NCBI GenBank assembly: GCA_037903355.1
Contig: JBAJFE010000026.1
Span: 3,410,001-3,474,000 of the forward strand
DNA: 64,000 bases
Source: Trichuris trichiura
Taxonomy: Eukaryota > Nematoda > Enoplea > Trichinellida > Trichuridae
Direction of reading: 5' to 3'
Part shown: in pieces, positions 3,001-60,350 of the stretch
How the letters are laid out: each line of letters opens with the position of its first letter
Position numbering within the stretch: the first letter of the stretch is position 1
Program-made: the position numbers and the translations under genes
The notes under the pieces: generated by a model
Database searches by the model: none
Told to the model about the DNA's origin: nothing
The model's input: only the letters and a program-made list of their open reading frames with translations

Positions 3001-5339
3001 TCACTAAACATAAGCGCTGTATGGTTATCGTGTAAACTTGAAACGTAAATTGGCAGTCTTAAAAGGCCACAGGTAAACTAAATAAAAGTTTTATTTTCAA
3101 TGACATCAACGTTGTTTTTTAACAATTAGATATGGTTTTTTAACTTAATTGTTTGTAACATTTAACGTATCTATCTATTATTTTTAACATCCAGCTCTGA
3201 ACTTTTCTGAATGTAGTGTTTTCCCGTCCGCAACTCTTCCCCGTAAAATCCTGGGCAAAAAAGCGTAAAAGCGTAAAATCCTGGGCGTAAAACCCTCGAT
3301 GTTGACACTGCTTGTTTCCGTCATCTATGTTTTCAAGACAGATTCTTTTCAAACGTTCTTTTAGTTTTGGGAAAGGATAAATGTCGGACAGAGTAAGACC
3401 TGTGCCGTGAAGTGGTTTTGAATATACTTCCAACGAAATTCACGAAGAATTGAATGCACGTTTTCCGATGAATGATTTGTTGCATTATCGTGACGGAAGA
3501 GCGGAACGGCGACGCAACTTTCCTAGCTTTTTCCTGGCTAGTGCTCTCCTTAACTCTTGCAAAGCCGCTGTAATAACCTCTGGTCACTGTTTTTTCTGCT
3601 ACGAGAAAATCAACCAAAGCTACGTCGTCTCAAAAAATGGATGGCATAATCATCTTTACTGATCTCTCTGTTTTGAACTTTGTTGATCCTGCTGACCTCT
3701 TTGACAACTACTGGTTGAATTTTGCTTCATCGTACTGTAAATCTGCCATTTATCTCCTGCGAGATTCGATCTGAAATCTCGGGCATTTGCTCCTCAATTC
3801 TTCCTAAAAGTTTTCCAGATGGCTTGGCCTTTCGAATCAGCAATTCATCGCACAATGTTTTCGGTGCCAACGCGCTGGAAAATCATTTTCAGACCAAACG
3901 TTTTGTGCACAGTCGCGAATTTTGAACCAAAAAAAACACCGTCCACGTTGGCTGTCTTTGTGACCGTAATTCGGCAGTCTGCTTCTACTATGTTTCGAAC
4001 AGCGCCACAGTTTCCTTTTCAGCTGCGATAGGTGACCTTTTCCGTCTTCAGTTATCTTCAGTGCCCTCTGCATCTTTTTTGAGATGCTTTTATCAGTCAA
4101 TAGACAACGGACTTGAATGGAGCATTACTTCCATAAACTTGCTGCGAAATCTCGACAATCTTCCTCGGTTGCTAGTTAAGCTTGACTAGAAATTTAGTGT
4201 TTGTTCTGAGCCCAGAATGAAAGTTTTTCATATCACGAAATGTTTATTTTAAACAGCTCTTAAATCATGAAGGCGAAGAGTTGCATCGGTTACCTTTCCT
4301 TACAAACCGAAGCATAACGCAGATAAGATTAAACATGTTTTATTTTTACAATTGGAGTTCTGTTAAAAGCTGCAAAGCTTTATCAGCGATTTTTCGAACA
4401 ACTTTCGTATTAACTGGGACGGATTGCTTTTGTTTATACCCAGGACTGGAAATGAAGTTAAGTAGATTACATTTTATCTTATTTAATCGACAGAGTGGAT
4501 ATTTATTGTGACAAGTTGGGTATAAACTGTTGATTTGAAACCTAAACACAAGCAAATACAAAGGTTTCACATAGGACCTTTCCTCGTCGTCACTGCAACA
4601 CAACTACGAAAAATATTTCTTCATTTCTCCGAAAGTACCTCCCTGTTACTAGACTAACGTTCGTAATAAAATAGTGAGCTAATTTTTTAGTAACAACTGC
4701 GTAACTTTCGGAACTTAAATGTTTCGTTTTCAGCGCTAAAATGTTGAGGTATCGAATGCTGGGTCAGCAGATGTTTGAAAATTTTCCAAATTTAGGGTTC
4801 CTTTTACCTAATGACAAACCCAGCGTCCATCTAAGCAAGAAAACGGGAATATTTTACTAGATCAAATGCAACTGCCCAACGGAGAAACTGGAAACGTAAT
4901 CACACAGATTTGATGAACTCATTGAACTCCTAACTGCTTAGAATAACGCACATAACATTCTGGGAATGGCAGTATTAACCTTAACGGTTTAAACTGTACT
5001 ATTCAGTGTGAAGTCTCCCCATGTTATGTCATCAGCGTGCATCGTAAGAGTATTGACTTTATTTTCTTGTCGTCTTGCAAGACAACTTTGCCCATTTCAT
5101 TCTGACTGTACGTTGCATGATGTTAGCGTTCTCAATTTTTCCTTACGGCAACTACTTGAGCGATTGTTAGCGTTTCATCAACGGAGCTCTCAGGACAAAG
5201 CTTGTTGCGTTTTTAGGATTTGTGCGTAAAACTGACGTCTTAAGCAAGAAATAAATTTTTCTGTGAGAAAAAGCGAAAAATTATACTTGTATTGCGAAGG
5301 ACTGTATTTTCGGAGTATGCGTTTGTGGTTTTTTTGTAG
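1..5339. other. No supportable gene; probably upstream intron or flank of COX11
   Basis: I found no convincing coding exon in this stretch on either strand. The open frames are short, AT-rich and lack recognisable motifs or good splice contexts. Because the COX11 terminal exon starts at 5340 with a splice acceptor, part of this region must be intron. I looked for the upstream COX11 exons (the conserved segment before the CFCF copper motif) and did not find them, so they may lie before the window. A hammerhead-like motif on the minus strand (4697-4736) is listed separately. Confidence 0.5.
4697..4736 (-). ncRNA. Hammerhead-ribozyme-like motif (Penelope-type)
   Basis: Read on the minus strand the core is CTGAAAA, then C, then a stem II of GAAAC/GTTCC, then GAAAG, TTA and CGC. 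The flanking GCG pairs with the CGC after the presumed cleavage site to form stem I. The sequence after it (CAG, TTGTTA) resembles that after the motifs at 30792 and 37626, so this is probably a solo remnant of the same Penelope-like family. No open frame accompanies it. Stem II has one mismatch, so activity is uncertain. Confidence 0.5.
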
Positions 5340-5537
5340 TGCTTCTGCTTCGAAGAACAAATGATCAATCCAGGAGAAGAAGTGGATCTACCCGTTTTCT
5401 TTTATCTTGATCCTGAATACGCAGATGATCCACGGCTAGAGGAAGTTGATGACATCGTCCTCCACTACACGTTCTTTGAAGCGAAAACAGGCTTACAGCT
5501 ACCTCAGCCTATCGTCGCTCCCCCTATTGTTCATTGA
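5340..5537 (+). CDS. COX11: Cytochrome c oxidase assembly protein COX11, terminal exon
   Basis: COX11 is a mitochondrial inner-membrane copper chaperone. It delivers copper to the CuB site of COX1 during cytochrome oxidase assembly. The exon begins after a pyrimidine-rich acceptor (TTTTTTTGTAG) and opens directly with CFCFEEQ, the conserved family motif whose two cysteines bind copper. It continues with the characteristic PVFFYLDPEYADDP and HYTFFEAK blocks and ends in TGA at 5535-5537 (65 residues). This matches the normal C-terminal part of the family, plus a short extra tail. The start codon, mitochondrial targeting signal, membrane helix and N-terminal part of the domain are absent here and are presumably encoded upstream, behind a long intron. 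Orthology is secure from the motif; whether the locus is intact is unknown. The next plus-strand gene is more than 10 kb away. Confidence 0.93.
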   Translation, partial: CFCFEEQMINPGEEVDLPVFFYLDPEYADDPRLEEVDDIVLHYTFFEAKTGLQLPQPIVAPPIVH

Positions 5538-7139
5538 TGTTTGCCTTTTGTACTCATAAAACAAATTTTTGGGCTGCTTAGTTTGTCTAGGTAGTAGGAT
5601 ATCGAAACTTTAAGTTAACATTATTTAATCAAGGCAGTCTTTCGCTTATGGTAGCAAATGTGCCGACGTTTTTAACCATCGGTTGGCCTCCAAAATCATA
5701 TCTGATGGCCTGATGACTTTTCGAGAGTAATACGAAAGCTCCAGTCGATTACTACACACATATTAAACAAGCCAATCACAACTTAACCGTAACTTTCAAA
5801 AATTGTAAACAGGTGTACTAGCAAACTTCGCTTTCAGATCACCACCATTTATAGTTAAAATAATGCTATTTCTCAGAACCACTGGCTCAGAGGAGAGTGT
5901 ATTGTGTCTGAATTGACAGGTCAGCTGATCATTAACATCACGAAGTTCTAATCTGCATTCCTAGACTCATTCACTATGCGTAGTAGTTTTTAGTACGGTT
6001 ATATCCTGTTTCGCGCAGGTACGTGAAAAGTTGTTCGTGAAGAGAATCTTTATGAAGTCCACCGTAATATGCTATTATTTAATACAGCAAACAGGTTTGA
6101 ACAGACCGCGACACGACGAACGGGGAGTAACAAAATTTAGAAGATTGAATGAACTAAACTCAAAAATGTTATAAACAAAGTCTTGCGTAAGGTTTAAGTA
6201 ACATATCAACACTTTAGTGTTGTTTACCATAATTGAAAAAGATACCTGATAGACGAAGAGCTGAGGCAGCGGAAAGACATGAAGTAACATGAGGTTCTGT
6301 GTGCTCCAAACGGTTGCCGATGAATGGTCGTAAAGCTGTACTGTAGTTGAAAACAACGGTACGGTAAGGTGCGTAGCAAAACGGGAGAATGCCAGAATGC
6401 CTCGTGCTCTGAACGGCGCGCTTATATACCCTTCCCTGACCTGCGCGTTGGCCACATGACGGGCACATGTCAGCGACCAGCGGCCGTCCAGAGATTTGGC
6501 CCGCTGCTGGCGCCGCTGCCTAGCGACATCGCAAATATTTACTTTCGCGCCTGGGAGAAACGCCCTTCTCAAACAGGTTGCGCCCGCTTTGGGGTCGTGC
6601 ACGTGCGCAACCACCTGCACAGGTTCGCCGGCTGATAAGTCGTTCCACAGCCATTGCGCCATGCAGACATCTAATGCCTGACCTACATGCCTGCCTGCTT
6701 GGAGTTCGATTATCCGCTTTGGCGGAAACGAAGCATTTCAAAAAAACTTTATGTCTAACTGTTTGGCATCATAGGTCCTCCTATTGTGTACTTCCCTGTA
6801 TTCTATCGAAATCTTACACACTCCTGCTCTAAGCTGAAGTGTCTTTCCAAAGATTAAAGTTGTTCTTTTATTACAATCGCAGCGAAATCAACTATAGCAA
6901 ACATGCTTTGCAAATGCTTAGTTCCCATTTTTACCGCAGTTTCGTTTTTCAGCCATTCGCCCTCGTATTCAGCTCCAATTTGTAGTCTTTCTGCTTGCAA
7001 TTGTAAGAGCTCTTCTTCCATTACTTCTTCTTTGCAGAATTATAAGTGTCCCTCAACATCATTCGTCAAGTTACACGAATCCTGCTTCCCATTCCCAATT
7101 CACTCACTATTTGTGCGTTTATAATCAGTTATTAAAAGT
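5538..7139. other. Intergenic; contains a CpG-rich stretch with a minus-strand TATA-like box
   Basis: No coding function is recognised. About 6380-6720 is distinctly GC- and CpG-rich against the AT-rich surroundings, which explains several overlapping open frames on both strands (for example 6075-6662 minus). On the minus strand a TATATAA box within GGGTATATAAGCG (about 6420-6432) is a plausible core promoter pointing leftward, but no gene downstream of it could be identified. This could equally be a transposon terminus. Confidence 0.35.
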
Positions 7140-7144
7140 CCCAG

Positions 7145-8110: not shown

Positions 8111-8139
8111 TATTGCCGCCTTAACTTCCGCTGGGCCAC

Positions 8140-10492: not shown

Positions 10493-10499
10493 TTCCATA

Positions 10500-12420: not shown

Positions 12421-12429
12421 ACTGGAAAT

Positions 12430-14172: not shown

Positions 14173-14417
14173 TTCGAAAGACAGGATGTATTTTAACAGG
14201 CTTGAATAGTTTCATAGTAGATCTTCAGATTCACGGGTTTCGCCTGTTGGTTGTATCTGTAAATAAACTTCAAAGTGCCCTACCAACGGATGGATGAGCA
14301 AATTGTTCTGTATTTTCTCTTACAATTTGCTCATCCATCCGTTGGTAGGGCACTTTGAAGTTTATTTACAGATACATCCAACAGGCCAAACCCGTGAATC
14401 TAAAGATCTAGTATGAA
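14173..14417. mobile_element. Fold-back element, copy 3, with perfect 12-bp target-site duplication
   Basis: Near-perfect inverted arms (TAGATCTTCAGATTCACGGG, then CTGTTGG, TATCTGTAAATAAACTTCAA, then GATGGATGAGCAAATTG, and complements) surround a short centre, TTCTGTATTTTCTCTTA. The whole element can fold into one long hairpin. It is flanked by identical ACAGAATGCTTT (14161-14172 and 14418-14429). The left subterminus TTCGAAAGACAGGATGTATT matches copy 1 in reverse orientation. Confidence 0.85.
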
Positions 14418-16358: not shown

Positions 16359-16740
16359 ATGAACAGACTTGGGCGGACAAATTGGGCAGACGATATTGCC
16401 TCTGGTAAGTTCATGTCTTTATATTTACAACTTAAGACCGCCGGTGACGGGTCTCAAATGACCCGAAAGCTCCGGAGTCTTTTTATATACATAACAAACG
16501 GGAACTATCCGTAATAAATTTCTTCATTATGAAAACATGCGGTCCCGTACCAAGAAACCACGTTTTCAAAAACATTGTCTTATCGCTCCTTTTCTTCGCG
16601 CAGCGTCACCAAACAGGATGCTCACACCGTCGGCGAGCACGAGTACGAGAAGGCAGCAGCCGGGAAGAGCAAGAGGCTCAAGACTCACGAACAAAAGAAC
16701 TTACAACCTCCGACCGAAGAGAAAAGTAGATTATCGCTAG
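16359..16740 (+). CDS. Small basic protein, two exons, function unknown
   Basis: Exon 1 is 16359-16404 (MNRLGRTNWADDIAS) and ends at a canonical G|GTAAGT donor. Exon 2 is 16604-16740 after TTTCTTCGCGCAG. Phases agree (1 nt + 2 nt) and give about 60 residues ending in TAG. The second exon is rich in Ser, Thr and Arg and finishes NLRPKRKVDYR, which looks like a basic nuclear-type tail. I do not recognise the family. AATAAA signals follow at about 16784 and 16800. The 199-bp intron, long for this genome, contains a sense-strand hammerhead-like motif (16437-16476), its downstream hairpin (16497-16512) and a GTAATAAA. An upstream in-frame ATG at 16263 exists, but the extra segment looks non-coding, so I chose 16359. 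It could instead be a fragment of a longer gene. Confidence 0.6.
16437..16476 (+). ncRNA. Hammerhead-like motif in sense orientation within an intron
   Basis: Stem I is CCG pairing with CGG. The core CCGGTGA differs from CTGANGA at two positions. C follows, then stem II GGGTC/GACCC around TCAAAT, then GAAAG, CTC and CGG. A second hairpin, AACGGGAACTATCCGT (16497-16512), and GTAATAAA follow at the same spacing as in other copies. The core changes probably weaken self-cleavage. Confidence 0.6.
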
Positions 16741-19852: not shown

Positions 19853-20589
19853 CTGCAAGTAAAAAACCGACATTACAAAGAGTTAATCTCAGATGTAAAA
19901 TAGCACGTTTACAATGCAACCCATTTGGACCACCGCAACTATCATTAATCGACATTAAGATTGTCTCAAAACATTGTCCTCCACAAAAATCTGTAAATGT
20001 TTTCACAAGCACCTCTCTTTCGTTTCAGTGATGAGTTTACACTGTTCGAAAATCAAGAGCTTTCAATCCGCGATGCCCATAGCTTCCAGGAAATCAAATG
20101 TCCCGTCTTCAGTGGCGAACTTGAATGTAAATGGAGTGAAGCAGGATGATATTAACTGTGTACAAAAATGGAAAAAAGTAGCGTTTCTACGAAGAAACCA
20201 TCCAGACTATAATGGTTGAGCAGCTAAAACTCAAGAACCAGTGCGATTCGTCGTACAACTTTAGGAATAGGAAACTGTTCACTTTGTGAGGCTGTCGAAG
20301 AAGTGTCGCTGATGAATTAGGTTTCTCTCTATCAACAGAAAAAGTACACCGTTCAAGCCTACCAAAGAAGATAGTGGAAGTTCGCATATAACCTACTGCA
20401 GGTTTTCGACTGCGTCAATTCGACCTGCTCGGCAGACCGTAATTATAACGAAGCGCGAATAAAACTAGGTGTGCGTATAACTGGAGCTATAGCCAATTAA
20501 AAATTGCTTCAAAAGCATTGCCCATTGCTGGTAAAAATTAAAATTGATATAGCTGTTAAAAGTTGGAGAACTTGTAACAGGTCCACATG
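19853..20589. other. Upstream intron or flank of PIGO with a degraded hammerhead-like motif
   Basis: I searched the minus strand here for the end of the PIGO catalytic domain and found no frame that stays open and meets a correctly phased donor. A minus-strand motif at 20074-20116 has CTGAAGA, C, GGGAC..TTTCC and CTATGG, with CCA/TGG able to form stem I. It looks like a decayed hammerhead copy. Confidence 0.45.
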
Positions 20590-20640
20590 TTTTCACTTTT
20601 CTCACGGCAACGAAAATTCCCTGTTTTCAACAACTGTATA

Positions 20641-20685
20641 CTACGCAGAGCATTCGGAACTAAGACGTTCCGTCCTCAGTGCTCG
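20641..20685 (-). ncRNA. Hammerhead-like motif, 3' of Penelope endonuclease remnant
   Basis: Minus strand: GCA, CTGAGGA, C, GGAAC/GTTCC with loop GTCTTA, GAATG, CTC, TGC. The GCA/TGC pair replaces the GCG/CGC pair of the copies at 4697 and 30792, a compensatory stem I change. The GAAA box is GAAT here. Confidence 0.65.
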
Positions 20686-21615: not shown

Positions 21616-21660
21616 TGAGCACTGAGGATGGGACGTGTTAGTTCTGAAACCTCTGCGTAG
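21616..21660 (+). ncRNA. Hammerhead-like motif, partner arm
   Basis: Plus strand: GCA, CTGAGGA, T, GGGAC..GTTCT with loop GTGTTA, GAAAC, CTC, TGC. It mirrors the motif at 20641-20685 in the inverted arm. Stem II carries wobble pairs. Confidence 0.65.
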
Positions 21661-21749
21661 AAGAACTTGTTGAAAACAGGGAATTTTCGTTACTTTGAGA
21701 AAAAAGGATGGGTATAGCTGTGGCAACGTCACCATGAAAACTGTAATCT

Positions 21750-23869: not shown

Positions 23870-25912
23870 ACGACCTAAGTCCTCCGTAGTTTGAGGCACT
23901 TGTCCTACACAACGGAATACCAGAATTCTCTCTGTCACTTTCATGCGCTGAAGACAGGGATAGGTGTTCCCCGAAAGCTTCGCAATATTAATAAAAGCTT
24001 TGAACGGCTTTCTGTACAACAATGTTGTTCTAAATATCTGAAACAATAGTGACCGGCAGGGGAGAGACATGATGTATAATCCAAGAGATTCAAAGTTGCG
24101 TATGTCAACGCGTAATACTTCTGCAATATTAGTATTTTTGAAACATAAACTCAAGCGCTACTGTGAGGAATAATCGTGCCTTTTTGACAGACTAATACTG
24201 GCTTTAATTTCTTCAATTTCTCACGCGTTACTTCAACTTCAGCACGCCACTTTCCTACTGTGATGCACTCACGCGTCTCATAAAGTTACTATGAATGATA
24301 CTGGCCTGTCCGTACATGATGAGTCAGTTGTAGCAGGTGACACGGGGTTCATCAGTATCCATTTCAGAAATTCATCCTATAGCCATTTTTTACAGCGAGA
24401 TTAGAGATCCAGTCCAAAAGAGATAAGCATTACGCAAAAGAAATAATCCCAACCAGATTTCCGTTTGTAGTTGAGCTCGCGTGGAAGCTCATCTGCCTAG
24501 CTTTCTTATCTTACCGGTCTTCTTCAGATGTCGTGACAGTTCTTTCAGCAGGACTTCACGCCTTTCTATTTCTCACCTGATGCCAATGGTAAAGAGCGTT
24601 GGCTAGCTATGTTCGCGTTGAATCCACCTAATGTTGGTTTCTTCCGCAGCTTCAGAAGCGCCGGGTCCGCCTATTTTTAATAGGAAAATGACACAAAAAT
24701 GGAGCAAAAACATGACAAGAATGGCTACACAAAGTATAGTCCAATCGGAGAAAGTTGTCGCCAAAAACCAAATGGTGATAAAGATGAGACCATAAGCTTT
24801 TGGATTAATCTGTCAATGAGAAAAAAATTGTCAGTAGTAGTAGTAGTAAATTTCAACAGTAGTAGTAAATTTCAACTTCTGCAAAACTATGTCTTTTCAT
24901 CAAGGTGACAACTTTGTTGGCCTTGCGCTTAGGCTTGTTTTACCGGTTGCGCACTCACCGGCCAAAGGTGGTAGGCTCATTTTAGAGACAAGTAGTCACT
25001 GATGAATTTATTTCTAAGAATCAGACAACATTAAAATCGCCCCTAGTTCCACGGAAAGTTCCAATGTATTATTTCATATTCAACATACCGTTGCTGATGA
25101 ATCTTTCATGACGCTTATCAGCTCGTACTTACACATTTTAAAATCCCGTCTGTTGACCTCCAGAGAGACAGATGAGCGACACTACTCAGATCTTGTTCCT
25201 TCTTGGACTGTTTCGACGATGTCACGTGTTGATTGCTGGTTAGTGTTCTTTGGTCAACCGGTCGCACTTTTGGAGGAGACAGACGGATTCGCTAACTGCA
25301 GAACCAGTTTGGATGATCAATGTAACTGACTTCAAATGAGCCTAACATCAGCTCTGAGGCCTCAAGGAGATGGAGCAAAAACTCCTGAAAAGCTAGCCCC
25401 CTACTCCTTAGAGTCGCGGATCATACTTCCCAATGTGCACCCTCCGACTTAGAGGGCCTTGTGCGCCCTTTGAACTCAAAAGTGCCTCCCAAGTACCCTC
25501 TTGGCGATTTGCCGTACCGCTCTGATTTAAAAAACATCCAACATTGGGGCATATGCCTCACTGTGAGGGTCACTATCTGTACCATAAAAAGCTTCAAACT
25601 GAGAATCGGTAAATGCCTCTCGAGGCCCAGTACCCTTGAAGGCAGGCATGTAAAGTGCAAGCGATGACATTCATATGTCTTTCTAAAAGCATCGCTCTAT
25701 CATAACAGCCAAGTCATTTAAATGGGTCGAAATGCGCTGATCCCAAAAGAAAGACCACATCATTGACCCAGTTGCTAAGAAAACTAAAACAGCCAGCAAG
25801 AAACTAGCAACATTTTAAGCCATTCAAGTCATAATGTTTATTATGTACAGGTAACCACTGAACGCGATACAGTTCAGTGCATCCCAATTACTACCCACGT
25901 GAAACCATCCAA
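23870..25912. other. No gene recognised; short AGT/AAATTTCAAC repeat at 24831-24876
   Basis: Only short open frames without motifs are present. At 24831-24876 GTAGTAGTAG and two copies of AGTAGTAAATTTCAAC form a small tandem repeat. Near the right end TTTATT (25837-25842), AATAAA on the minus strand, is a plausible polyadenylation signal about 75 bp beyond the stop of the next gene. Confidence 0.45.
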
Positions 25913-37900: not shown

Positions 37901-40532
37901 TCATATTTATTAATATTTGACTTTAGTGATGAATGGTCACCTTTCGTGGCACGACAAAATGGACACCAGACGTAGCTAGCAGTAAACATAATATGCAAGT
38001 CGTCACTACATACTCGCTATTCAGTATTTACCTCAATTAATACAATTTTTTTATGATGATTAGGTCTGACAAATGTTTGCTCTTCTCCTAACACTGGAAC
38101 TGCTGTAATTGGATAACCAACATTGTTATTATTAGTTGGCTCCAAGAAGGCTGTACAGTCGCTAAGAACGATGGCGATTTAGTATGCAGAGCATTTCATC
38201 TCACCTGTGCCTTGACCTTTTCTTCTGCCGCTGCTTTATCACCGATAACAATGGCGTGGCGAAGTGTTGCCTTTTTCAGTATCTGGAACTTTTTAGCTTC
38301 CAGCTCTGCTCTTCTTTTGCGTCGTTCATCTTCTTGGACAACTGATTTGGCAATCCTTTCCTGTGCCCACTCAGGAAGATTGTGCACGCGACCCCAGTTC
38401 TTCATGCGTTCGGTGATCACTTTTTCAATGTCAGCCTTCTTTTGCTTTTCTGTCGCTTGGCCATCCTTTTTACATACTGTAGACAAAAAAATGAGTCATC
38501 AGGTATTCATTTAGCGTACATATGCTGCTTTAATTATGGTATAGAACGAGTAGGGTTTAAATACCCAAACAGTTATAGGAATTGTTATGACTACGCTTTT
38601 TTTGTGAGCTAGTCTTGATATCCTCAGTGTTTTACGGTTTGCACTCAATGGAACTTAACTTCTATCGACCGCGTTATTTCAAAAATAAACGGTTAATCAT
38701 AATCTTAGTCTCCTGATAAACATTGAATGAGCTCGTGTAGTCATTTAGCTGGAATGAATAGATCTTACGGTGCAGGACGACTATGCAATGATAGATGGCC
38801 TAATGTTTGCAATGCCTAAAATTGTTTAAAGTATCTTTTGTCGCCGGCGTTTCCGCCACTGAACGATGACTTCATCTGCGGTAAACCTTAATGAAGTTGC
38901 CATGATGTTCTTTACCTGTTATCTGGACATCTCCTACGCGGACATTGTGTAATATTCTAAACATTGCGTCGTATGCATCTTCAACTAAGCTTTCCCAAAA
39001 CCAAACCTATCAGTCGGTTGATACAACTATGAGGAAGAGTGTTTCGAAAGACGGGGTGTCTTTTAACAGGTTTAGGTTTTTTCATAATTGGTCTTTTGAT
39101 TCACGGGTTTGTCCTGCCTGATGCATCTGTACATAAACTTCAAAGAGCCCCACCAACGAATGGATAAGCAAGTTGTTAGAGCAAATACAGAACAATTCTA
39201 CACCGTAAGTTTCGGAACTGCTCGTGTTCCGTCGTCAGTAGTGTAAGGGACGGAGCAGCAGCAGTGTAAAGCTCCGGCCCTTACACTACTGCCGGCACTA
39301 CACATAATCTCACCGCTGAAGACGGGTCGCGAAAGACCCGAAAGCTCCGGAAGAAAAGAAAAATCTTTTTGTTTTACTTCACAACGGGAGAGAATCCGTA
39401 ATAAAGATAATTTTCGATATTGTCTGCTTGCTAACATGTAGCTTCATCGCCATCTCTTCTTGGGCTTGACTCGGATCTGATTCCATTAGCCCTTTCGACA
39501 CTTGGCTGTTGAAATTTGAAGGCCGACCAGTCCATTTCCAATCTTCCAGGCTATAGCAGATCTTTGCAAATTTCTTGAACCAACACCGCGCCGTCGATTT
39601 AGGGACACTGCCCAAACCAAACGCTACATTTACGTGAGAGAGCGCTTCCCTTACATATCACCGTGATCTAAACTCGTAAAGCAAAACTGCTCGCCCTAAT
39701 TTCTCGTCTATACTTATGCTTCTACTATGTTAACTCGTGAAAATAGTTCGCCGCAGTCTAGACGAAGGCACCGTTCGATAGCGTGGAACGCAAACTGTAC
39801 ACCGATATGCAACACAAAGCACAACAATTCATGTCCTAAAACTTTCTGGTAGGCCTAATATTTTTGGGCAGAAAATGATAAAAAGATCAGAATACGTGAA
39901 AATGGAGGGAAGGGCAGAGAGAGAGAGAGGGGGAGAGAGAGAAAATCATCCCATGAACACAGAAAATTTAGCGAGACTTAAAGCAGTCGTTTCGGCTTAG
40001 TTATCTCCTGGTCGGTTGCGCGAATCTTCCCATGTAATTAAAGTGTGAATGCGAGCGAAGACAACCATTGTGATATCTCGGGAGTTAATGGCATGAGCGC
40101 ATTTCTCCTTTTTATTCAAACTCGATCAATGTTTAATTTCCCACATGACGGTCTTAGTGCACTGGTTTCAAAATAAATTTTGCCATATTGCCACAATAAA
40201 TTACAAGGAGCATCACCACAGGAAATGCGCCTGGCTACCAGTCAATTTTTTGGGTACTAGTATTCGCTCTATGGCGTAGCTAATGAAACCCCTGCTGTTA
40301 GTGCTATAAATGATAGGTATTCCGCAAGAAATTCTTTACCTACAGCCTGTTCTCTTCCTAGTCGCAAGCTACCACGCAGCTCGCTGACTTTCTTCCGGAA
40401 TGTGTGCATGAGGCCTTGCTTGCCTTCTGATTTAGGGGATAAACTGTCTGATCTTCGTGACTTGTCTTCACTGCCAGAACTTCGCGGCTTTCGGTCTTTT
40501 TGATTGCCGGTTTGCTTCTTTTGTTGGCTCAT
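25913..40532 (-). CDS. Unrecognised coiled-coil/low-complexity protein, about 363 residues, five exons
   Basis: Exons on the minus strand: 40532-40340 (ATG at 40532), 38476-38205, 26637-26353, 26306-26124 and 26071-25913 (TAG). All junctions are GT..AG, phases agree, and the total is 1092 nt. The N-terminus is basic and Ser/Lys rich (MSQQKKQTGNQKDRK). Exon 2 is charged and helical (ERMKNWGRVHNLPEWAQERI, DERRKRRAELEAKKFQILKK). Exon 3 continues VMKDMRKGDAALPYSLKTLN and turns into Ser/Ala/Pro low complexity. The C-terminus has SLQEYINRLCKKDLWENES and FPRGRAYVKDEPAVEF. I do not recognise the family. Intron 2 is 11.6 kb and packed with transposons, so extra exons there cannot be excluded. No signal peptide or membrane segment is visible, suggesting a soluble cytoplasmic or nuclear protein. 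A duplicated piece of exon 3 lies at 41443-42018. Confidence 0.75.
27405..27725 (+). pseudogene. mariner transposase remnant (C-terminal catalytic part)
   Basis: Plus strand, in shifting frames: LGKLSRKSLLLQDKRLIHRA, EFVLLSNPP, then DWAPSDYLLPGNLKQHLR. This corresponds to the mariner pattern LLLhDNAr.H, NPPYSPDLAPSDY, NLKqHLRG. In the first the expected DN is DK, and the frame carries stops, so it is inactive. It lies in the 11.6-kb intron of the 363-residue gene. Confidence 0.75.
28250..29235. repeat. Nested fold-back element complex
   Basis: Several inverted pairs are nested. Outer short palindromes AGGCATTATAAGCAGTGCCT (about 28257) and AGGCATTTTATAGAATGCCT (about 29131) flank the block. 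Inside, 28371-28500 and 28690-28790 are inverted arms made of tandem variants of TCGAAATCCAGAATAGG. Between them, GCATCTTTTAGATAAGGAATGTATT faces its complement. A second fold-back at 28805-29095 has arms ACAAACCT..GCGACACCTA and complement around GGCTAAGCTTAGGCCAGGGC. No transposase frame. Confidence 0.7.
29236..29655. other. No feature recognised
   Basis: Intronic sequence of the 363-residue gene. Open frames at 29194-29633 have no motif that I recognise. They could be degraded Penelope coding sequence, because an endonuclease remnant follows directly. Confidence 0.35.
29656..30105 (+). pseudogene. Penelope-like element, GIY-YIG endonuclease remnant
   Basis: Plus strand: VIVHKLKRGCSVSYIGKRAV corresponds to the GIY-YIG start of Penelope endonucleases (usually YxiKC.CsasYIGeTgR). 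It is followed by degraded His/Arg-rich sequence and then SRDIKETVKKSALIKHASQH, equivalent to EAIKASAIVEHASR in the copy at 20590. The catalytic Arg/Glu region is disrupted by stops. It lies inside the long intron. Confidence 0.65.
30382..30436. repeat. Perfect 27-bp-arm palindrome
   Basis: A 55-bp perfect inverted repeat (arms from TCACGAGATAATACGCATTC inward, single central base). As RNA or single-stranded DNA it would form a loopless hairpin. No element was recognised around it. Confidence 0.9.
30437..30790. other. No feature recognised
   Basis: AT-rich intronic sequence between the palindrome and the hammerhead-like motif of the next Penelope-like element. No supportable reading frame. 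Confidence 0.4.
30792..30836 (-). ncRNA. Hammerhead-like motif downstream of a Penelope-like ORF
   Basis: Minus strand: GCG, CTGAAGA, C, GGAAT..GTTCT with loop TCGTCA, AAAAG, CTA, CGC. It lies about 70 bp beyond the end of the GIY-YIG reading frame on the same strand, the position expected for a ribozyme in the terminal region of a Penelope-like element. GCG/CGC forms stem I. One base of the GAAA box is altered. Confidence 0.65.
30900..32830 (-). pseudogene. Penelope-like retroelement (RT plus GIY-YIG), degraded
   Basis: Minus strand from about 32830. The N-terminal part contains FVTFTFFCSRHLL-like basic sequence, then VVNLSSLVLNGAEKMVLGKG with LNFVPSPTNP (32290-32250), the conserved Penelope N-terminal motif. 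Reverse transcriptase pieces follow: KADKGNSVVILDQTIYSQKI (about 32030) and ASYDVKDL (RT motif A, about 31590, first catalytic Asp). A GIY-YIG remnant (VVYEVSRNCPASSIRDEQKP, about 31280-31220) precedes KASKRGSHCNGQLFLKVFRQ and KIREIKKALFFRYNVVSSRD (to 30907). RT motif C was not recognised. Several stops and frameshifts make it inactive. It occupies the long intron of the 363-residue gene, in the same orientation as that gene. Confidence 0.85.
32831..33420. other. No feature recognised
   Basis: Intronic, AT-rich; no recognisable frame. The last part may include the left end of the following hAT element, but no clear CAGTG..CCCAA terminus was found. Confidence 0.4.
33424..35190 (+). pseudogene. 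hAT transposase pseudogene (ZBED5/SCAND3-like), nearly full length
   Basis: The start MVAPKKKCRQYSAEYLKYEF precedes a BED zinc finger with CLICEKTFANEIMKPSKL, then HLNRMHGDKAGKDL (33510-33640, one stop inside). The central region follows: ASYNLSLMIAKSGKPHTI, LLPTVSEVLRTML, NNNTVPRRIDEMGADIES, LQLDESVLPQNEALLLAY. Next are a DDE/RNase-H part (VAMDSAPSTV, VRCVMHRQHLVAKRLSDRL, LLFYTEVGRLSRGVRLNRFY) and NETNLQLQGNDLNLIKTKN. The C-terminal dimerisation region survives as KRNRLQIVQRGNLRLLLTNTEP (about 35085-35140). Stops and frameshifts are scattered, so it is inactive. It is the reference copy for those at 8140 and 50582. It lies in the 11.6-kb intron. Confidence 0.9.
35449..35697. repeat. Long inverted repeat with hammerhead-like motif in both arms
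   Basis: Arms of about 95 bp (GTTTATTCTCGTTGTAAGTA, AAGAAAGTAAGAGCA, ACGATCGG and complements) face each other around a GATAGGGC-rich centre. The plus-strand motif at 35605-35646 reads CCGACGA, T, GGAAC/GTTCC with loop TAGTTGA, GAAAG, CTC, CGA, followed by the hairpin at 35677-35692. The minus-strand arm (35497-35543) reads ATCG, CTGACGA, C, GGATCC, ending GGAAAGTCC, CGAT. ATCG/CGAT forms stem I. Confidence 0.75.
35700..36445. other. No feature recognised
   Basis: Intronic sequence with no supportable frame or repeat. Confidence 0.4.
36450..36580. mobile_element. Fold-back family fragment
   Basis: Contains TGTTCTGTATTTTCTCTAAC, TTTGCTCATCCATTCG, AGTTTACTTACAGATACATC and AACAGGCCA, which match one arm of the elements at 8964 and 14173. 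Only one arm is present here, so it is partial. Confidence 0.7.
37020..37505 (-). pseudogene. Penelope-like reverse transcriptase fragment
   Basis: Minus strand: KVNKGNLVIVTDKKAFKK, then MNELLTYEVYTPVQKDFLKN, then LYRPLRIHKSGVPRGCVI (the Penelope palm/fingers pattern LYGLPKIHKpg.PLRPI). It continues STIGPLTGSRTSSVKEFW and DPSNILVSYDVKDLF, RT motif A with the first catalytic Asp. The frame is open for 136 codons (37437-37027), longer than in the copy at 30900, suggesting a younger or less decayed insertion. The rest of the RT and the endonuclease are absent. Confidence 0.85.
37626..37666 (+). ncRNA. Hammerhead-like motif next to Penelope RT fragment
   Basis: Plus strand: GCG, CTCAAGA (G5 changed), T, GGAAC..GTTTT with loop ATATCA, GGAAG, CTA, CGC. 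The sequence after it (CAGTTGTTATTATTGTTAT) matches that after the motif at 30792, so it is the same family. The core change predicts loss of activity. Confidence 0.55.
39050..39410. mobile_element. Ribozyme-bearing fold-back element
   Basis: The left part (TTCGAAAGACGGGGTGTCTT, TTTAACAGG, TTCACGGGTTTG, ACATAAACTTCAAAG, CAACGAATGGATAAGCAA, ATACAGAACAATT) matches one arm of the fold-back family. It runs directly into hammerhead-like motifs on both strands: minus 39202-39242 (CTGACGA, C, GGAAC/GTTCC, GAAAC, TTA) and plus 39311-39352. Between them TAGTGTAAGGG faces CCCTTACACTA. It ends in a hairpin at 39383-39399 and GTAATAAA. It physically links the fold-back family with the ribozyme module. 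Confidence 0.75.
39311..39352 (+). ncRNA. Hammerhead-like motif, best-conserved core
   Basis: CCG, CTGAAGA, C, GGGTC/GACCC with loop GCGAAA, GAAAG, CTC, CGG. Stem I is CCG/CGG and stem II is five Watson-Crick pairs, both different in sequence from the copies at 4697 or 30792 but preserved in pairing. The downstream hairpin AACGGGAGAGAATCCGT is at 39383-39399. Confidence 0.7.
39379..39725 (-). pseudogene. mariner transposase N-terminal (helix-turn-helix) remnant
   Basis: Minus strand: GRAVLLYEF, then SHVNVAFGLGSVPKSTARCW, FKKF, SLEDWKWTGRPSNFNSQVSK, QAQEEMAMKLHVSKQTISKI. This follows the mariner DNA-binding region: LLYEF.G..A.EA...I..AFG, TAQRWF.KF, LED..RsGRPs, and a second helix-turn-helix ending LnVSh.TI. 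The catalytic domain is absent. Stops near 39680 show that it is inactive. It lies in intron 1 of the 363-residue gene. Confidence 0.85.
39900..39945. repeat. GA-rich microsatellite
   Basis: GGCAGAGAGAGAGAGGGGGA, then GAGAGAGA; simple sequence within intron 1 of the 363-residue gene. Confidence 0.85.
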
Positions 40533-45400: not shown

Positions 45401-48400
45401 TTCACGCCCTGTTCACTTTTCTCATTAAAACTTCTAGTGGACTGTACGGCCTCTAACTTTCCAGTGCTCAATGATTTTCAGTGGAATGGATTGGGATGGT
45501 GTGGTACCACTCCTTCGAGGAATACTCTGTTAAACACCAAAAGTGGGGGAAGAAACACGAATACCGAAAGCGGTGGTAAAGGGAGCAAAGGACTGTGGAG
45601 ACCACTTAACCTTGCCTCCTTGCCGCTCTTTTAAGCGCCATTTCTCCCTGTACTCACATAGCGAGAAAAGAAGCAGGGGAACGAGTGGCCTCGACTCTTT
45701 CTCAATCTCTTTTTTCCAGTTCCTTTTCTCCCTTTTTGCGTCGATCAGTAGCACAGAACTAATGGACCAACCACATCAGCGAGGTGGTGGCGAATTTACA
45801 GTTCTAAAAGAACCTAAAAACGAGCCTAATCTTGACAAACACTGATATACAGCGAAGCGGAAAACGAAAACAGGGTTGATCTGAAGTCTTTATTTCCGGA
45901 TTCTTCATTTAACGGCCGCTGCCTATTCATATGTACATAAGAAACCATTACCAAGCAGCATCAAAATTAATGGCAAATATGTAAAAATTGTTTGAAACAT
46001 TAATGCAGCGAAAACGCAATCTCATGGTTATATTCTTTTCTGAGTTACATAGATTTTTTTATTGGTAAGATAAGGCCCGTCAAAGCAATAAAAAAACTTT
46101 TCTTCTGAAGTCTTCAGGTTAAAGTGTAATCTGACCTCCAGTGGATAGGCAAGGAGAATGATTCAAGTGAAATAGAAGGTAGATGTTGATCATTCGTTCG
46201 CTTTTAAAGTGCGCCCGTTGGTTTACAGCAAGTTAATTTGATCGAATATCGCTGTTTCAGATTTCCTGTCAGCAGATTGTTGCAAATGTTGTTTTTGTTT
46301 ATCCCTAACTATTAGTCACTGTACTACTACTCAATTCTTTCACTTGAAGATAGAACGCTTCATAAACGGGTAACGGATTTTTTACAAGAAAAAAAGGTTT
46401 TCATTTCAACTGTATGAATAGCATGCAAGAGCAGTCGAAGCTTTCGGCACACGAATGGTTCCGTTTTCAACGATAAAAGCAGTTGTGATCGCCTGGGACG
46501 GTGCTTTTATGCTCGATACAACCGGTCAGGGAACTATCGCGGAGCATATGGTCTGGCTGATCAGATCAGCCTACAGTTCACGAGTTCCGACGCGTTTGTC
46601 TCAGTTGATGGAAGGAGCGTTATGCGGATTTATAATGCCCTCTGTAACTTGCGCAGCAGAACCGGATTTTCGCGACGTAAGACCTTTGATCGGAGGTCGA
46701 GTGAACATTAAGGGAAGGGATGTTCGACCACCGCTGAGCCTATGATCCTTAGAAACGCCTTGTTTCATACAAACTACTGTTGACATTATTTCTTTCATAC
46801 TATAAAGACGACGTAACCACCCACATCTACCTCTACTACGTTTTTATTTATCTATATTCATTTGTTCCGATTTTGTTATTCCAATTGGAAAGGTATCACT
46901 TTTTATTGATTCGTTTTTGAAGGCCATTTATCCGTTTAAATCTATACCCATTGTCTTCATTTTTTAAATTTTGTTTCTTTCCGGTTTCCAATGTAACCAT
47001 TTGTCGTCTGCAATCATTTATATGCATGTCATTCTTTAAAAATTACGTACCCATTTTTATTCATACTCATCGCGTTATTAATTATCGGTATCCCAATGCA
47101 CTGTTTTTGTTCGCTTGTTTGCTTTGATGTTGTTTTTGTTTGTCCCAGTTTTCAAACGCAACTATGTGTTATTATTTACTGTTATAAACAAATTTCATTA
47201 TTTAAGAATTACTTATCCATTTTTCGCTTGTTCTACAAAAGAGAATAGCAATCAGGTTAAACAGCAGTATTTGGAAAAACCAATTACGTTTGACCAGAGT
47301 GCGCCTCCTTCATCAACTCGATCACGGTCGTATCTCGAATTGTGTCTAATGTGAAAGGCTTCCTTAATCTATCTCAGGCGTAGGTTGCTTTCACGACACA
47401 GTGTTCTCGGTTAAAGAGTTTGTCACAATGGATCGCATGTTTTGTTACAGCTGAAATCCGTAAAACCCTCTCCAAGGCAATAAGAGTATTCAACATCGGC
47501 GGTCCTGCACGATTTGAGATATGGGTTCCATTGCGCAGATACTTTGCATTACCATAACTTGTTAATTTTTTCACATGTTGAATAAACCTGTGCCCTGAAA
47601 TATTACCAGTTTCTCAAACACAAACCGCGGAACAGGCAAATTCTGTCAAACAAGCGAACACACTCTAAAAAATGACAAGACGATCAACATCTACTTTCTG
47701 CCTCTTCGATCATTCTTTTTACCTATCTGCTGAAAATATGTTACGGCTTAACCTGAAAGCTCCAAAAAAAATCTTTATTGCTCTAACGAAACGTTATGGC
47801 ACCAAAAAAAATATCAACATTCTACATGAAGTACTACCGCCCCGTACCAAAAGGCTGTTTCCGAGTTAAACAATTAAAACGGACTGATCAGAGCATTTTC
47901 TAATCCATCTTCAGCGTGCAAGAAACATGTAATGTAAAATAGCGTCTATGATGCAAGGCTTTACGCGTTGTCTGCGTTCTTGCGCTGTTACGTTGGCGTT
48001 GCCACATTTCGTTCGTTAATGTTACTTTTTTCCGGTTTAGACGGCTGTCATTGTCAGTTAACATTGCTTCCTAAATTTGTGTAACAGGAATTCGTTCCTG
48101 CCTGCTTCACCAGTGCTCAGCTGCTGATCCAGGCATGGTTCTGTTATCAGCATTATTACATGTTTCAGGACTAAACTTGCCTGTACTACTTCTACTTCCA
48201 GTTTCCATTTACTGTATCCACCCTGTTTTTTTTCAAAATCGAATCTATTCTGCACGATATTAATAAATTTTCACCTTCCCAAGGTTCAATAAAACGCAAA
48301 CATTCGCACAACTAAAAGACAAAACATTTTGCAATGGGTTGAAACCTATTCATGATGCAAACTTTTAATTATCGTTAAACCCGTTATGTTTTTATTACGA

Positions 48401-51400
48401 ATTTTTTTCGGTACGACACGTTGATAATAAGCAAGGCTTTTACTCCAGGCTTTCGGATCCGCTCTTGAACTGCCCTTAGTGGTAAAATTTGATTAGCGGG
48501 TAGATCAATTTTTACCGCTAAAAGCGGTTCAAGAGCGGACCCGAAAGCTCCGGAGTAAAAACATTACTTACTATCAACGGGTCGTACCGTCATAAGTTTT
48601 ATAATAAAAACTTAAGCGCCCGTTACAAAATGCTATGTTCTGTTAAATAAAAGAAAATAGTGTTCAGACCTTTCGGGTCCAAGCTCGACGGTTTATTAGC
48701 GGAAATCGATTTCGCTGATGAAAGGTCCAGCTTAGATCCGAAAGCTCTGGGCACTATTTTTTTATATATATAACGGGTTTAACCGTAATTAAAGTTTACA
48801 ACTGAAAGACAACAGTATATTACTCGCCTTACAGAATATTCACATGGTTTGGTGTTAAAACAATTACTCCCCAACAAAAATGATAAAAACGTTTTCAAGA
48901 AATGCTTCCTCTATTATCAGACCTCACAGAAATACTCCAAAACAAAAAAACATTAATAATAAATCTGCTGCATTCTTACTTTGAAACAATTTGCTTTGGG
49001 CTGCACAGCAACAAACTTCAAAGTGTAAACAAGAAAAACCTGGCTAGCGGGGGGCAAAATTTTTACGAAGCTAACGTCGATAACTATACTTAGTAAACTT
49101 TGGTCTCAATACATAAAATTGTGGACTACCAATATTCATCTGTGACAGGTTTCAAATAAAGAAAAGAATCCACGAAAAGTAAACGAACCCATATGTGGTT
49201 TCAGTTTCGAGAAATGGCAAACCACGCTAGGAACTTACTATATGAAACTTTTCGCCAGCAGTGATAAAACAGCAGAGACGAGAGCAAGCTTGAATCACTG
49301 GGACAAGAACATTTTCAGCACTGTTTGACAAAATCATTTGTCGAAGTACAGAGATAATTAAAGACGACAAAATTTGCGTCTACAAGATGAACATCAAAAC
49401 AGGAACAATAACTGAGCTATTAATTAAGCACACTTACCGATATAAAGGGAATGAGCGCACTGACAACCTCAGCTGCCATTATCCGCTGCTCAAGCAAGCG
49501 GCTATCAATACGCTGCACGCAGTTCACTAAGACTTCGGTTTCTACTCGTGTAGAATCTACTTTGCTAGCTATGTACGCGCAAACGGCAACCAGGGCTTGC
49601 CTAAAAAGAATAAGCTAAAAATATTAATAGAATCAACACAGCAAATTAAAAGCAACACCTTTGTTCCGCGGTAGGATGCTTAAATAAGTCGAACATCATA
49701 CCACATAGCTTTTCCCGCCGTTTGGGTTTTGGATGCGCGATGATAACAACAGCAACAAGGGGTAAAACTAAACAAAAAAAGTTCAACCAAAATGAGGCTT
49801 ACGCCATTGACAGGCCCAAAAAGCAATATCAGTTGACTATAGGAATTGAGTTTCATATTCCTAGAACTCCAATATGCCTGATAAAATACATAAAAAAAAC
49901 TAGCTGAACGACTCAACGTTTTAGCCAGCAGAGGTTTGAGCTGGGGATCTTTCGACCCCGCAGATTTGGCCGAACTCCATTTTAATTGCACTTTAGGTTA
50001 ACCAGTGCAGACAGCCAGTTAAACATTACTTACCTGACACACTGACTTGATGGTTTGAATATGTGCCTAGTCATCGGCTGGACGAAGTTGACAAAATGAT
50101 TTACGCGCAGATGCGCACAATCTTCACCCGAGAAGTTACAATCCCCATGTCATTCGTCAGAAATAATAGTACCACAGGAATAAGTGTGTGGCTGCTCCAA
50201 CTCTCAACAGGAACGAGAAAAAAACATTCATGAGTCTCCATGCAGAGGCCACCGAAAACCTATTGTTACGGGGTGCAGTCGACCGCAGTCGGCTTTCCGT
50301 TTGGAAAAAAAATTACCATTCACTTCCACGGTCTGTCCTCAACTCCTGTTATTAAAGAGTTCCTTGCTAGTGACTCTGCAACAACTTTAATGAGGAGGTT
50401 CCACTCCATGAGCGCTACTCTAGTCATTTCTGTAACGCGCTAAGTACAACTGCAAGCTACAGCAGTTGCAACAGTGGTCTTACTTAGTTCCTCCCTACGG
50501 AAGTGACATTATGTCAGCTCATGACTCCACCAGCAAATGAACCGAACAGCCGTCCTGCAGCGCAGCCCCATTACCGTAAAGCAGTGTTTCCCAAGGAGGT
50601 GGTACTGTTCCACTTCACCCTTACCCCTGATGGCACTGCAAAATCCTAGGGGACGCTGGAGCGAAAACGGGCATTTGGGGGAGGGCTGGTAAGCCTAAAG
50701 GACATTGGCACGCCCGGGGGCGGTACTGCCTCCTGTAAGAGCTAATGGGATACCGAATAGTTCTGCCGCATGAAGTGCATATCCAACGCTCCTGGTGCCT
50801 AAGCAAGCGCCAGAAACCCAAATAGCAACAGTGCCGTACTGCCTGCACAAGTCTTGTGTCGCGTTCTTCTTTTGCTTTTTTGCTAAACGCACTTTTCGTT
50901 TACTCTGACTCACCGACGCTGCTCAAAGAAAGCTCGTCGCAGCGCATAAATTGGCTCATTTGCTGTAGCTTGGCGTTAAGCACGCATGGCGAAACTTTCT
51001 GCTCCGTAGAAAAAAGCCATGCATGCGCAGACGTAGATATCGTTTTTCAAAACGTCTTTGCGGCGGAGAAAACAAGTTAATGGCCATTGGTCAACTTCGT
51101 CTGCCAGAATGAGCTCCTGCTTGATCTGGAGCGACAAAACAGCGCTTGTTGCTGCCATAATTACTTTTCGTTCGGTCTCAGTCTACGGAAGCTACTAACA
51201 CTACGAGTAGCTTCCGTCGTCATCGCGCTTTTCTTTCTGGGTTCCAAGAAATTCCATTCCATGTAAGTGCCCATCGTTGTACAGCATAGAATCCTCTTAA
51301 CTAAAGTCAACTTTAGCAACTTTCTCTCATTGCCCGCTACTTAAAAGGGATTTGTTTGATCAGGCTTCCTAATGGCAGAATCAAAAAGGCAATGTAGGTA

Positions 51401-56782: not shown

Positions 56783-56796
56783 AAGTTCCTAAGCTT

Positions 56797-57202
56797 GAAA
56801 ACTGGATGTTTTGTAACGGGTTGAATTTTCATGGTTGTAAGGTCTTCTACGGCTTTTCCCGTTTTTCGTTGTGCTGTTATCTGTAATTAAACTAAAACAA
56901 CTGCTCTACCAATGGATGGATGAGCCGTTATTAAGAAAAGTACAGATATCAACGCACTCAACTTTTTTATTGTTCAAAGTTTTCGGAACGCTCTAGTTCC
57001 GTCGTCACTGAGGTGGTGGAGCTATAAAAAGTGCTATAAAAAAGTGCTATAAGAAGAACAATAAAAAAGTTGAGTGCGTTGATATCTGTACATTTCTTAA
57101 TAACGGCTCATCCATCCGTTGGTAGAGCAGTTGTTTTAGTTTAATTACAGATAACAGCACAACGAAAAACGGGAAAAGCCGTAGAAGACCTTACAACCAT
57201 GA
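56797..57202. mobile_element. Fold-back element, copy 4, with perfect 14-bp target-site duplication
   Basis: Inverted arms (TTGTAAGGTCTTCTACGGCT, TTTCCCGTTTTTCGTTGTGC, AACAACTGCTCTACCAA, GATGGATGAGC and complements) are followed inward by GATATCAACGCACTCAACTT and its complement. The centre has a minus-strand hammerhead-like motif (56977-57017: GTGACGA, C, GGAAC/GTTCC, GAAAA) and a tandem AAAAAGTGCTATAA. Flanks are identical AAGTTCCTAAGCTT at 56783-56796 and 57203-57216. The outer arms match copy 2 at 13733. Confidence 0.85.
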
Positions 57203-57216
57203 AAGTTCCTAAGCTT

Positions 57217-58184: not shown

Positions 58185-58226
58185 CACGCTGACGACGGGA
58201 CTAAAATGTCCTGAAAGCTGCGCACG
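58185..58226 (+). ncRNA. Degenerate hammerhead-like motif
   Basis: ACG, CTGACGA, C, GGGAC..GTCCT with loop TAAAAT, TGAAAG, CTG, CGC. The core and stem II are good, but the cleavage-site base is G, which does not support hammerhead cleavage, and stem I is short. A fold-back-type arm (TTGCTCAACCATTCGTTGG) follows within 60 bp. Confidence 0.5.
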
Positions 58227-58358
58227 AATTGTTTTTCTGTGAACTCCCTAACTTGCTCAACCATTCGTTGGTAGCGCATTTGTTCTGGTTTGTAGAGTTA
58301 CAATTAGCAAGAACGGGAAGAAGCTGTGGAAAGATCAAAATAAAGACCTATCACCTTA

Positions 58359-60240: not shown

Positions 60241-60264
60241 TACTAAACATCCGGTCTGTGTCTT

Positions 60265-60350
60265 ACATCGCTGAAGACGGAAACAGGCAATTTCTGAAAG
60301 CTTCGATTCGATACATTTTCTTGCTACGTTCAACGGGGGAATATACCGTT
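60265..60350 (+). ncRNA. Hammerhead-like motif plus terminal hairpin
   Basis: ATCG, CTGAAGA, C, GGAAA/TTTCT with loop CAGGCAA, GAAAG, CTT, CGAT. Stem I is ATCG/CGAT, another variant with preserved pairing. The terminal hairpin AACGGGGGAATATACCGTT is at 60332-60350. Confidence 0.65.

What the first reader, a model, noticed from the sequence alone, without database searches (positions are those of the whole stretch)
4697..60350. A dispersed family of hammerhead-ribozyme-like motifs with compensatory stem changes
Roughly fifteen sites share CTGANGA, one extra pyrimidine, a five-pair stem II, GAAA, and a stem III reduced to AGCT followed by C, A or T. Stem I differs between copies yet stays paired: GCG/CGC (4697, 30792, 37626), GCA/TGC (20641, 21616), CCG/CGG (16437, 39311), ATCG/CGAT (35497, 60265), CCA/TGG (20074). 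Stem II also varies with pairing kept (GGAAC/GTTCC, GGGTC/GACCC). Very short stem III hammerheads are known in Penelope-like elements, where they are thought to cleave best as dimers. The extra pyrimidine after the core is unusual, though extra bases at this junction occur in some natural hammerheads.
Basis: partly seen in the sequence, partly recalled or inferred. Interest (0 to 1): 0.9.

Follow-up and report, generated by a model that had tools for sequence, protein, structure and literature searches.

The report
Whipworm Penelope retrotransposon hammerhead ribozymes
A genome that is likely a whipworm's carries thousands of copies of a tiny hammerhead-type RNA motif, found inside Penelope-like jumping genes where checked; the motif is predicted to cut its own RNA, likely when two copies pair, and it belongs to a kind already known from other animals.

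Summary
A covariance model built only from copies outside the window finds 16 window sites at E 0.0018 or better. The pattern CTGANGAC-N-GAAAGCT occurs 4290 times in the 72.7 Mb genome against 7 for its reversed control. Stems I and II covary, and G at the cleavage position is rare (92 of 4290). The copies are the minimal type I hammerheads of Penelope-like elements (PLEs). In 26 of 30 GIY-YIG loci a sense hammerhead lies downstream of the endonuclease, 25 of them 555-803 nt from its start. Fetched copies sit in pseudo-LTRs, mostly inverted, with the PLE 'tail'. The host is likely Trichuris trichiura or a close relative. The extra base is constitutive here: present in 1580 of 1581 copies with intact GGGTC/GACCC. 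I also read it in the printed sequence of the Anolis PLE PAc. The open idea is that this base pairs with catalytic G12 and keeps the lone motif silent. Self-cleavage was not tested.

The parts
39312..39351 (+). Hammerhead motif, intact by every rule applied: CCG/CGG stem I, CTGAAGA, junction C, GGGTC/GACCC, GAAA, AGCT, C17
   Evidence: CM 57 bits E 3e-13
60267..60307 (+). Hammerhead motif, intact: ATCG/CGAT stem I, GGAAA/TTTCT stem II (one G-U), AGCT, T17
   Evidence: CM E 5e-9
23944..23984 (+). Hammerhead motif, one stem II mismatch
   Evidence: CM E 4e-9
16437..16476 (+). Decayed hammerhead (CCGGTGA) in a pseudo-LTR that still has hairpin, AATAAA, ATGA and the Penelope tail downstream to about 16570
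   Evidence: CM E 1e-8; sequence
39202..39242 (-). Hammerhead motif with ACTT in place of AGCT, first stem I pair broken
   Evidence: CM E 7e-8
30795..30834 (-). Hammerhead motif (GAAA to AAAA), about 83 nt downstream of PLE ORF remnant ending at 30913(-)
58185..58224 (+). Hammerhead motif with G17, predicted not to cleave
35607..35647 (+). Hammerhead motif with broken core CCGACGA, right arm of inverted pair 35442-35552 / 35593-35703
35498..35538 (-). Hammerhead motif, left arm of the same inverted pair, decayed
   Evidence: CM E 0.012
56973..57012 (-). Hammerhead motif (core GTGACGA) at the inner edge of the left arm of inverted pair 56823-56975 / 57056-57208
48711..48751 (+). Hammerhead motif with A at the junction, one stem II mismatch
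48514..48554 (+). Hammerhead-like match in palindrome 48384-48615
   Evidence: CM E 4e-4
4698..4737 (-). Hammerhead motif, core CTGAAAA, AGTT
21618..21657 (+). Hammerhead motif with ACCT, about 92 nt downstream of PLE endonuclease remnant 21313-21530(+); right arm of inverted pair 20597-21046 / 21251-21703
20644..20683 (-). Hammerhead motif (GAAT), about 77 nt downstream of PLE remnant 21184-20756(-); left arm of the same pair
20076..20116 (-). Hammerhead motif (GGAA), CCA/TGG stem I
27093..27134 (-). Hammerhead motif, decayed
   Evidence: CM E 2e-4
37627..37666 (+). Hammerhead motif, core CTCAAGA, GGAA
   Evidence: CM E 0.09
36411..36441 (+). Hammerhead-like site, arm of inverted pair 36403-36572 / 39080-39250
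   Evidence: CM E 0.33, not significant alone
30913..32495 (-). Penelope-like ORF remnant (RT and endonuclease pieces)
   Evidence: tblastn
36575..37446 (-). Penelope-like RT remnant
   Evidence: tblastn
47258..47781 (-). Penelope-like endonuclease remnant
   Evidence: tblastn

Best explanation
These sites are the minimal type I hammerhead motifs of Penelope-like retrotransposons, which lie in the elements' pseudo-LTRs downstream of the reverse-transcriptase/GIY-YIG reading frame; they are predicted to cut the element's RNA right after the base that follows AGCU, likely as paired dimers. Shown here: sequence, copy number, position in the element, covariation of stems I and II, rarity of G at the cleavage position, the constant extra junction base. 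Inferred: a lone motif cannot form stem III, because AGCU (or ACGU) has no loop. Two motifs in a tandem transcript, or in two RNAs, would join through the self-complementary AGCU, with stem I formed between the partners (double hammerhead). Cleavage at successive pseudo-LTRs would release unit-length element RNA with a 5'-hydroxyl and a short leader before the ATG. The element's own protein may be needed, as published for the Anolis element PAc.
For: 4290 matches against 7 for the reversed pattern. Covariation score 0.426 against shuffled 0.192; 93% of cells paired, 60% or less when slid. G17 in 92 of 4290. Sense hammerhead downstream of GIY-YIG in 26 of 30 loci, 25 of them 555-803 nt from its start. 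RVT_1 and GIY-YIG in the two open frames L059 and L060. Inverted pseudo-LTR arms with a tail, as described for PLEs (PMC3846280 passages). PLE location and dimer cleavage are reported for this class (passages of PMC7761336 and PMC6466107). The PAc hammerhead cleaves only with protein (PMC11167929 passages). Direct tandems exist: three hammerheads 475 nt apart in L027, two 218 nt apart in L028. Stem III keeps self-complementarity through a double change, AGCT to ACGT: 82 of the 100 ACNT places listed, all but one of them in what looks like one family (my count).
Against: No cleavage data. AATT, another self-complementary stem III, is little above background (35 against 17). AGTT (wobble-tolerant) is hardly commoner than AACT (192 and 158), so those variants give the dimer model no support. 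ACGT looks like one family, possibly one event. In 14 of the 20 loci the motif has an inverted partner (my reading); a full-length transcript would then pair the motif with its complement. No Rfam hammerhead model matches even intact copies. Folding prefers other dimer structures to the double hammerhead in all 7 RNAs tried. The count of pairs with a change on both sides does not exceed shuffles (5 against 4.3).
Confidence: 0.8

Rival explanations
1. The motif is a self-silenced hammerhead: the extra pyrimidine pairs with G12, extends stem II to six pairs and blocks catalysis until a partner motif or the Penelope protein opens it. This adds a switch to the best explanation.
For: One extra base in 1580 of 1581 intact GGGTC/GACCC copies: C 1438, other 142, of which 89 of the 100 listed are T by my count. 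Among the 62 of 69 local copies with at least 4 stem II pairs, predicted pairing with G12 exceeds 0.5 in 44 of 52 C copies, 6 of 9 T copies and 0 of 1 A copy. Same pyrimidine in Anolis PAc, predicted pairing 0.88, and PAc RNA is inert without protein. At the same junction in CChMVd a C is strongly detrimental (PMC3705267).
Against: In CChMVd a G is also detrimental and U improves cleavage 3-4 fold, which a simple G12 lock does not predict. The C lies in a CpG, so T as the main variant can be mutation alone. A natural ACGT copy (L049) is predicted to fold otherwise, pairing 0.00. Folding programs do not model the hammerhead core.
Confidence: 0.25
2. The hairpin is kept as an RNA or DNA handle for the Penelope protein (packaging, RT start, stable 3' end) and cleavage is vestigial.
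For: PAc cleavage mutants still insert in vitro (PMC11167929 passages); nearest-neighbour energy comes mostly from stem II.
Against: G at the cleavage position is rare (92 of 4290), a rule that a bare hairpin does not need.
Confidence: 0.15
3. Animal non-LTR retrozymes: small non-coding tandem repeats making circular RNAs through type I hammerheads.
For: Short direct tandems in L027 and L028; retrozymes have 170-400 nt units (PMC7229834 passages).
Against: The motifs sit at a fixed place behind a Penelope ORF in 26 of 30 loci chosen by GIY-YIG; stem III lacks the loop of invertebrate retrozymes; 14 of 20 loci show inverted partners.
Confidence: 0.05
4. Ordinary repeat decay: stems look compensatory only because a few families were copied.
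For: Copies are related; the number of independent events is small and was not measured on a tree.
Against: At least five different stem II and four different stem I solutions, all paired; sliding partners by one column drops pairing to 60% or less.
Confidence: 0.03

Closest known systems
Minimal hammerheads of Penelope-like elements (Cervera and de la Pena 2014; Lunse, Weinberg and Breaker 2017; neither paper held, known through passages of PMC7761336, PMC6155905, PMC6466107)
   Same: Pseudo-LTR location, stem III missing, thousands of dispersed copies, palindromic stem III said to be needed for dimers
   Different: Whether those papers note the extra pyrimidine or the AGCU/ACGU alternation could not be checked
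Poseidon PAc hammerhead of Anolis carolinensis (PMC11167929, passages)
   Same: In its printed template RNA I read CCU|CUGAGGA|U|..|GAAA|CGU|C|AGG: extra pyrimidine, self-complementary stem III, 3-bp stem I
   Different: PAc overlaps the start codon; here the motif ends some tens to about 200 nt before the ATG (read) and follows the ORF stop
Plus-strand hammerhead of chrysanthemum chlorotic mottle viroid (PMC3705267, passages)
   Same: One extra base between A9 and G10.1
   Different: The base is A; a viroid with loop-loop interactions
Animal non-LTR retrozymes (PMC7229834, passages)
   Same: Type I hammerheads in repeats, weak helix III in amphibians
   Different: Non-coding tandem units; here an RT/EN element

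Membership tests
Minimal Penelope-type hammerhead (published variant class) | Core CUGANGA ... GAAA with stem II between | tested here: met
   these letters were also the search terms
Minimal Penelope-type hammerhead (published variant class) | Stems I and II supported by covariation | tested here: met
   3 pairs in stem I; II.1 and I.2 show no excess over shuffles
Minimal Penelope-type hammerhead (published variant class) | H17 is not G | tested here: met
   G17 in 92 of 4290, 28 of the 92 one family by my count; U16.1 was part of the pattern, so not tested apart
Minimal Penelope-type hammerhead (published variant class) | Stem III missing or reduced to a palindrome | tested here: met
   AGCT or ACGT directly followed by H17
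Minimal Penelope-type hammerhead (published variant class) | Located in PLE pseudo-LTRs | tested here: met
Minimal Penelope-type hammerhead (published variant class) | Cleavage as dimers | not testable with these tools
   Needs RNA
Canonical type I hammerhead | Stem III within one molecule | tested here: not met
   No loop
Canonical type I hammerhead | A9 directly followed by stem II | tested here: not met
   1 of 1581; two or more extra bases were not searched
Canonical type I hammerhead | Match to an Rfam hammerhead model | tested here: not met
   None at E up to 5 in the window or in 10 loci
Penelope-like element | RT and C-terminal GIY-YIG in one ORF | tested here: met
   RVT_1 and GIY-YIG over cut-off in L059 and L060
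Penelope-like element | Pseudo-LTRs, direct or inverted, with an optional 3' tail on one of them | tested here: met
   against PMC3846280; three arm pairs have a tail at both ends
Animal non-LTR retrozyme | Non-coding tandem units of 170-400 nt | tested here: not met
   ORF-linked in 26 of 30, inverted partners in 14 of 20; L027 and L028 show short direct tandems

The most novel reading that the evidence does not exclude
Penelope hammerheads from worm to lizard carry a built-in safety catch: a junction pyrimidine that pairs with the catalytic G12 and keeps each lone ribozyme off, so that only two motifs meeting through a self-complementary AGCU or ACGU, or binding by the element's own protein, release the cut.
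Probability: 0.2. Interest if true: 0.7.

Novelty: new member of a known kind. Interest (0 to 1): 0.4.

Why it matters
What hammerheads do for Penelope elements was called a mystery in 2020 (PMC7761336, passages). This genome offers thousands of copies, so core rules can be tested by counting: one extra base kept, G rare at the cleavage site, stem III self-complementary in two alternative forms. The extra pyrimidine shared by whipworm and Anolis gives a concrete hypothesis for why PAc RNA needs its protein to cleave.

Tried and rejected
Rfam scan for a hammerhead match: none; palindromes score as microRNA precursors below the gathering scores, which I take as artefacts of inverted pseudo-LTRs. 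DNA transposon with terminal inverted repeats: considered because copies are head-to-head, rejected after the tail, its identity with the ORF start, and the RT/GIY-YIG frames. Stem III change to AATT: not supported. Other animals' PLE hammerheads through contaminated bacterial and viral records: 48 and 3 loci fetched, only L061 and L062 look like PLEs to me, no hammerhead found in them. Print on Trichuris with Penelope or with hammerhead ribozyme: one paper each in the held library, listing only seen, about TERT and about an oxidoreductase. Odds of the lock reading were lowered from 0.22 to 0.20 after a natural ACGT copy folded otherwise.
Full report
Observation. CTGANGA is twice as frequent as in shuffled sequence (61 against 29). 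My descriptor scan gave 18 sites against 1-7 in 10 shuffles. To avoid training on the window I built a covariance model from 58 copies outside it: the 62 unique non-window matches, less those with loops other than 6 or 7 (7 pairs). With filters off it finds 16 window sites at E 0.0018 or better, the best 39312-39351 at 3e-13. In ten bacterial loci of 63 kb, filters off, the best is E 0.31; in 40 such loci (250 kb) with default filters 0.37. E-values of this model are rough. Most window sites are decayed: 39316 and 60271 satisfy every rule I applied, and 23948 misses one pair.

Scale. The window lies at C7:3410001-3474000 of a 72.7 Mb assembly. CTGANGAC, a spacer, then GAAAGCT occurs 4290 times, and 7 times when the pattern is read backwards. 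An ORF in the window (19043-19882, minus) is 96% identical over 64% of its length to a Trichuris trichiura protein, the only hit. The best named relatives of the PLE protein are from Trichuris muris and T. suis. The host is therefore likely the human whipworm or a close relative.

What it sits in. Around the copies I found head-to-head inverted arms that contain the motif in 14 of 20 loci (my reading). From the flanks printed, 17 arm pairs carry an extra piece of about 36 nt on one end only and 3 on both ends (L011, L021, L022); the arms in L027 show none. PMC3846280 (passages) describes inverted pseudo-LTRs and an optional 31-bp tail on one of them for Penelope elements. The tail reads as the start of the ORF: in L059 ATGAAAACACACGCTCCCGTACAAAAGCATCATGTTTTC, MKTHAPVQKHHVF, and the L059 frame contains KHHVFKTIK (my translation). 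Two frames of 854 and 865 aa carry RVT_1 and GIY-YIG above Pfam cut-offs. Of 30 GIY-YIG loci (the best 30 of 71 matches), 27 have a hammerhead on either strand within 1.5 kb. 26 have one on the sense strand downstream, 25 of them 555-803 nt from the GIY-YIG start. In the window, PLE ORF remnants end 77-92 nt before the hammerheads at 30830(-), 21622(+) and 20679(-).

Is it a hammerhead by its rules? Of 69 unique local copies chosen by core letters only, 56 have at least 4 stem II pairs and at least 3 stem I pairs. Pairing at I.3, II.3, II.4 and II.5 beats all 1000 shuffles; I.1 and II.2 are weaker (1 and 23 of 1000 shuffles reach them, 42 and 52 after collapsing to 44 distinct stems); I.2, I.4 and II.1 show no clear excess. 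On the 58-copy alignment 93% of cells pair (shuffled 80%, slid by one 41-60%), with 42 doubly changed cells against 9. The number of pairs with any double change, 5, is not above shuffles (4.3). Shuffles ignore relatedness, so independent events are fewer. Position 17, which must not be G for cleavage (recalled rule), is G in 92 of 4290, and 28 of those 92 are one near-identical family by my count.

Stem III and the dimer. After GAAA comes GCT and then H17, so stem III would be AGCU with no loop. A monomer cannot form it; two motifs can, because AGCU is self-complementary, and then stem I forms between the partners. Counts of variants: AGTT 192 (background 20), AACT 158 (12), AATT 35 (17), ACNT 595 (45), where 82 of the 100 listed are ACGT, 81 of them in what looks like one family (my count). 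So a second self-complementary form exists, but AATT hardly does, and wobble-tolerant AGTT is not clearly favoured. This is consistent with dimers, not proof. Passages of PMC7761336 and PMC6466107 say that such PLE hammerheads may act as dimers, with a palindromic stem III and a tandem arrangement. Direct tandems exist here (L027, L028), but inverted partners are commoner in the loci I fetched.

The extra pyrimidine. With stem II GGGTC/GACCC intact, the junction base is C in 1438, A, G or T in 142 (89 of the 100 listed are T, 11 purines, my count), and absent in 1; two or more extra bases were not searched. The same junction base is in Anolis PAc: the template printed in PMC11167929 reads CUGAGGA-U-GCC...GGGC-GAAA-CGU-C-AGG (my parse). 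RNAfold pairs the base with G12 above 0.5 in 44 of 52 C copies and 6 of 9 T copies, and at 0.88 in PAc. PAc RNA does not cleave without its protein. In CChMVd an extra base at this place is natural; C or G there is strongly detrimental, U is beneficial (PMC3705267). Hence the lock hypothesis, with U in CChMVd as the main result against it. In six RNAs the C:G12 pair gains 2.0-2.5 kcal/mol (five natural copies and one composite of mine). A natural ACGT copy (L049) gains 2.2 when compared alone, but its predicted minimum is another fold and its pairing probability 0.00. In none of these 7 is the double hammerhead the predicted minimum-energy dimer.

Verdict. A new, very abundant member of a published kind. 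The anatomy and the counts are solid; cleavage, dimers and the lock are inferred.

Noticed in passing
Genome, e.g. C7:6328, C11:916, C6:11065, C30:14751: One near-identical hammerhead-like family with G17 (CTGAAGACGGGAACCGTGTCCTCCTGAAAGCTG and variants), 28 of the 92 G17 places by my count; 9 of the 28 lie within 25 kb of a contig's first base, so it may be a subtelomeric repeat.
   Followed up: no
L009-L017 downstream of the motif; window about 16476-16520 and 39351-39400: Hairpin ACGGGA...TCCGT followed by AATAAA between the hammerhead and the ATG; AATAAA could be a polyadenylation signal in the pseudo-LTR.
   Followed up: partly
window 14318-14355, 36473-36510, 57095-57132 and others: GCTCATCCATCCGTTGGTAGAGC in the longer pseudo-LTRs resembles a tRNA D-arm / A-box (recalled); no tRNA called.
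   Followed up: no
window 58648-59514 (+): Open frame with a Tc5-type transposase DNA-binding domain, perhaps a pogo/Tigger-like DNA transposon.
   Followed up: no
L061, L062: Penelope-like ORFs in contigs filed as bacterial MAGs (Chlamydiia, Pseudogulbenkiania), probably eukaryotic contamination.
   Followed up: partly
L024 35-2923 and 3113-6001: A 2.9 kb inverted repeat, 97% identical, with Penelope-type hammerheads inside each arm.
   Followed up: no
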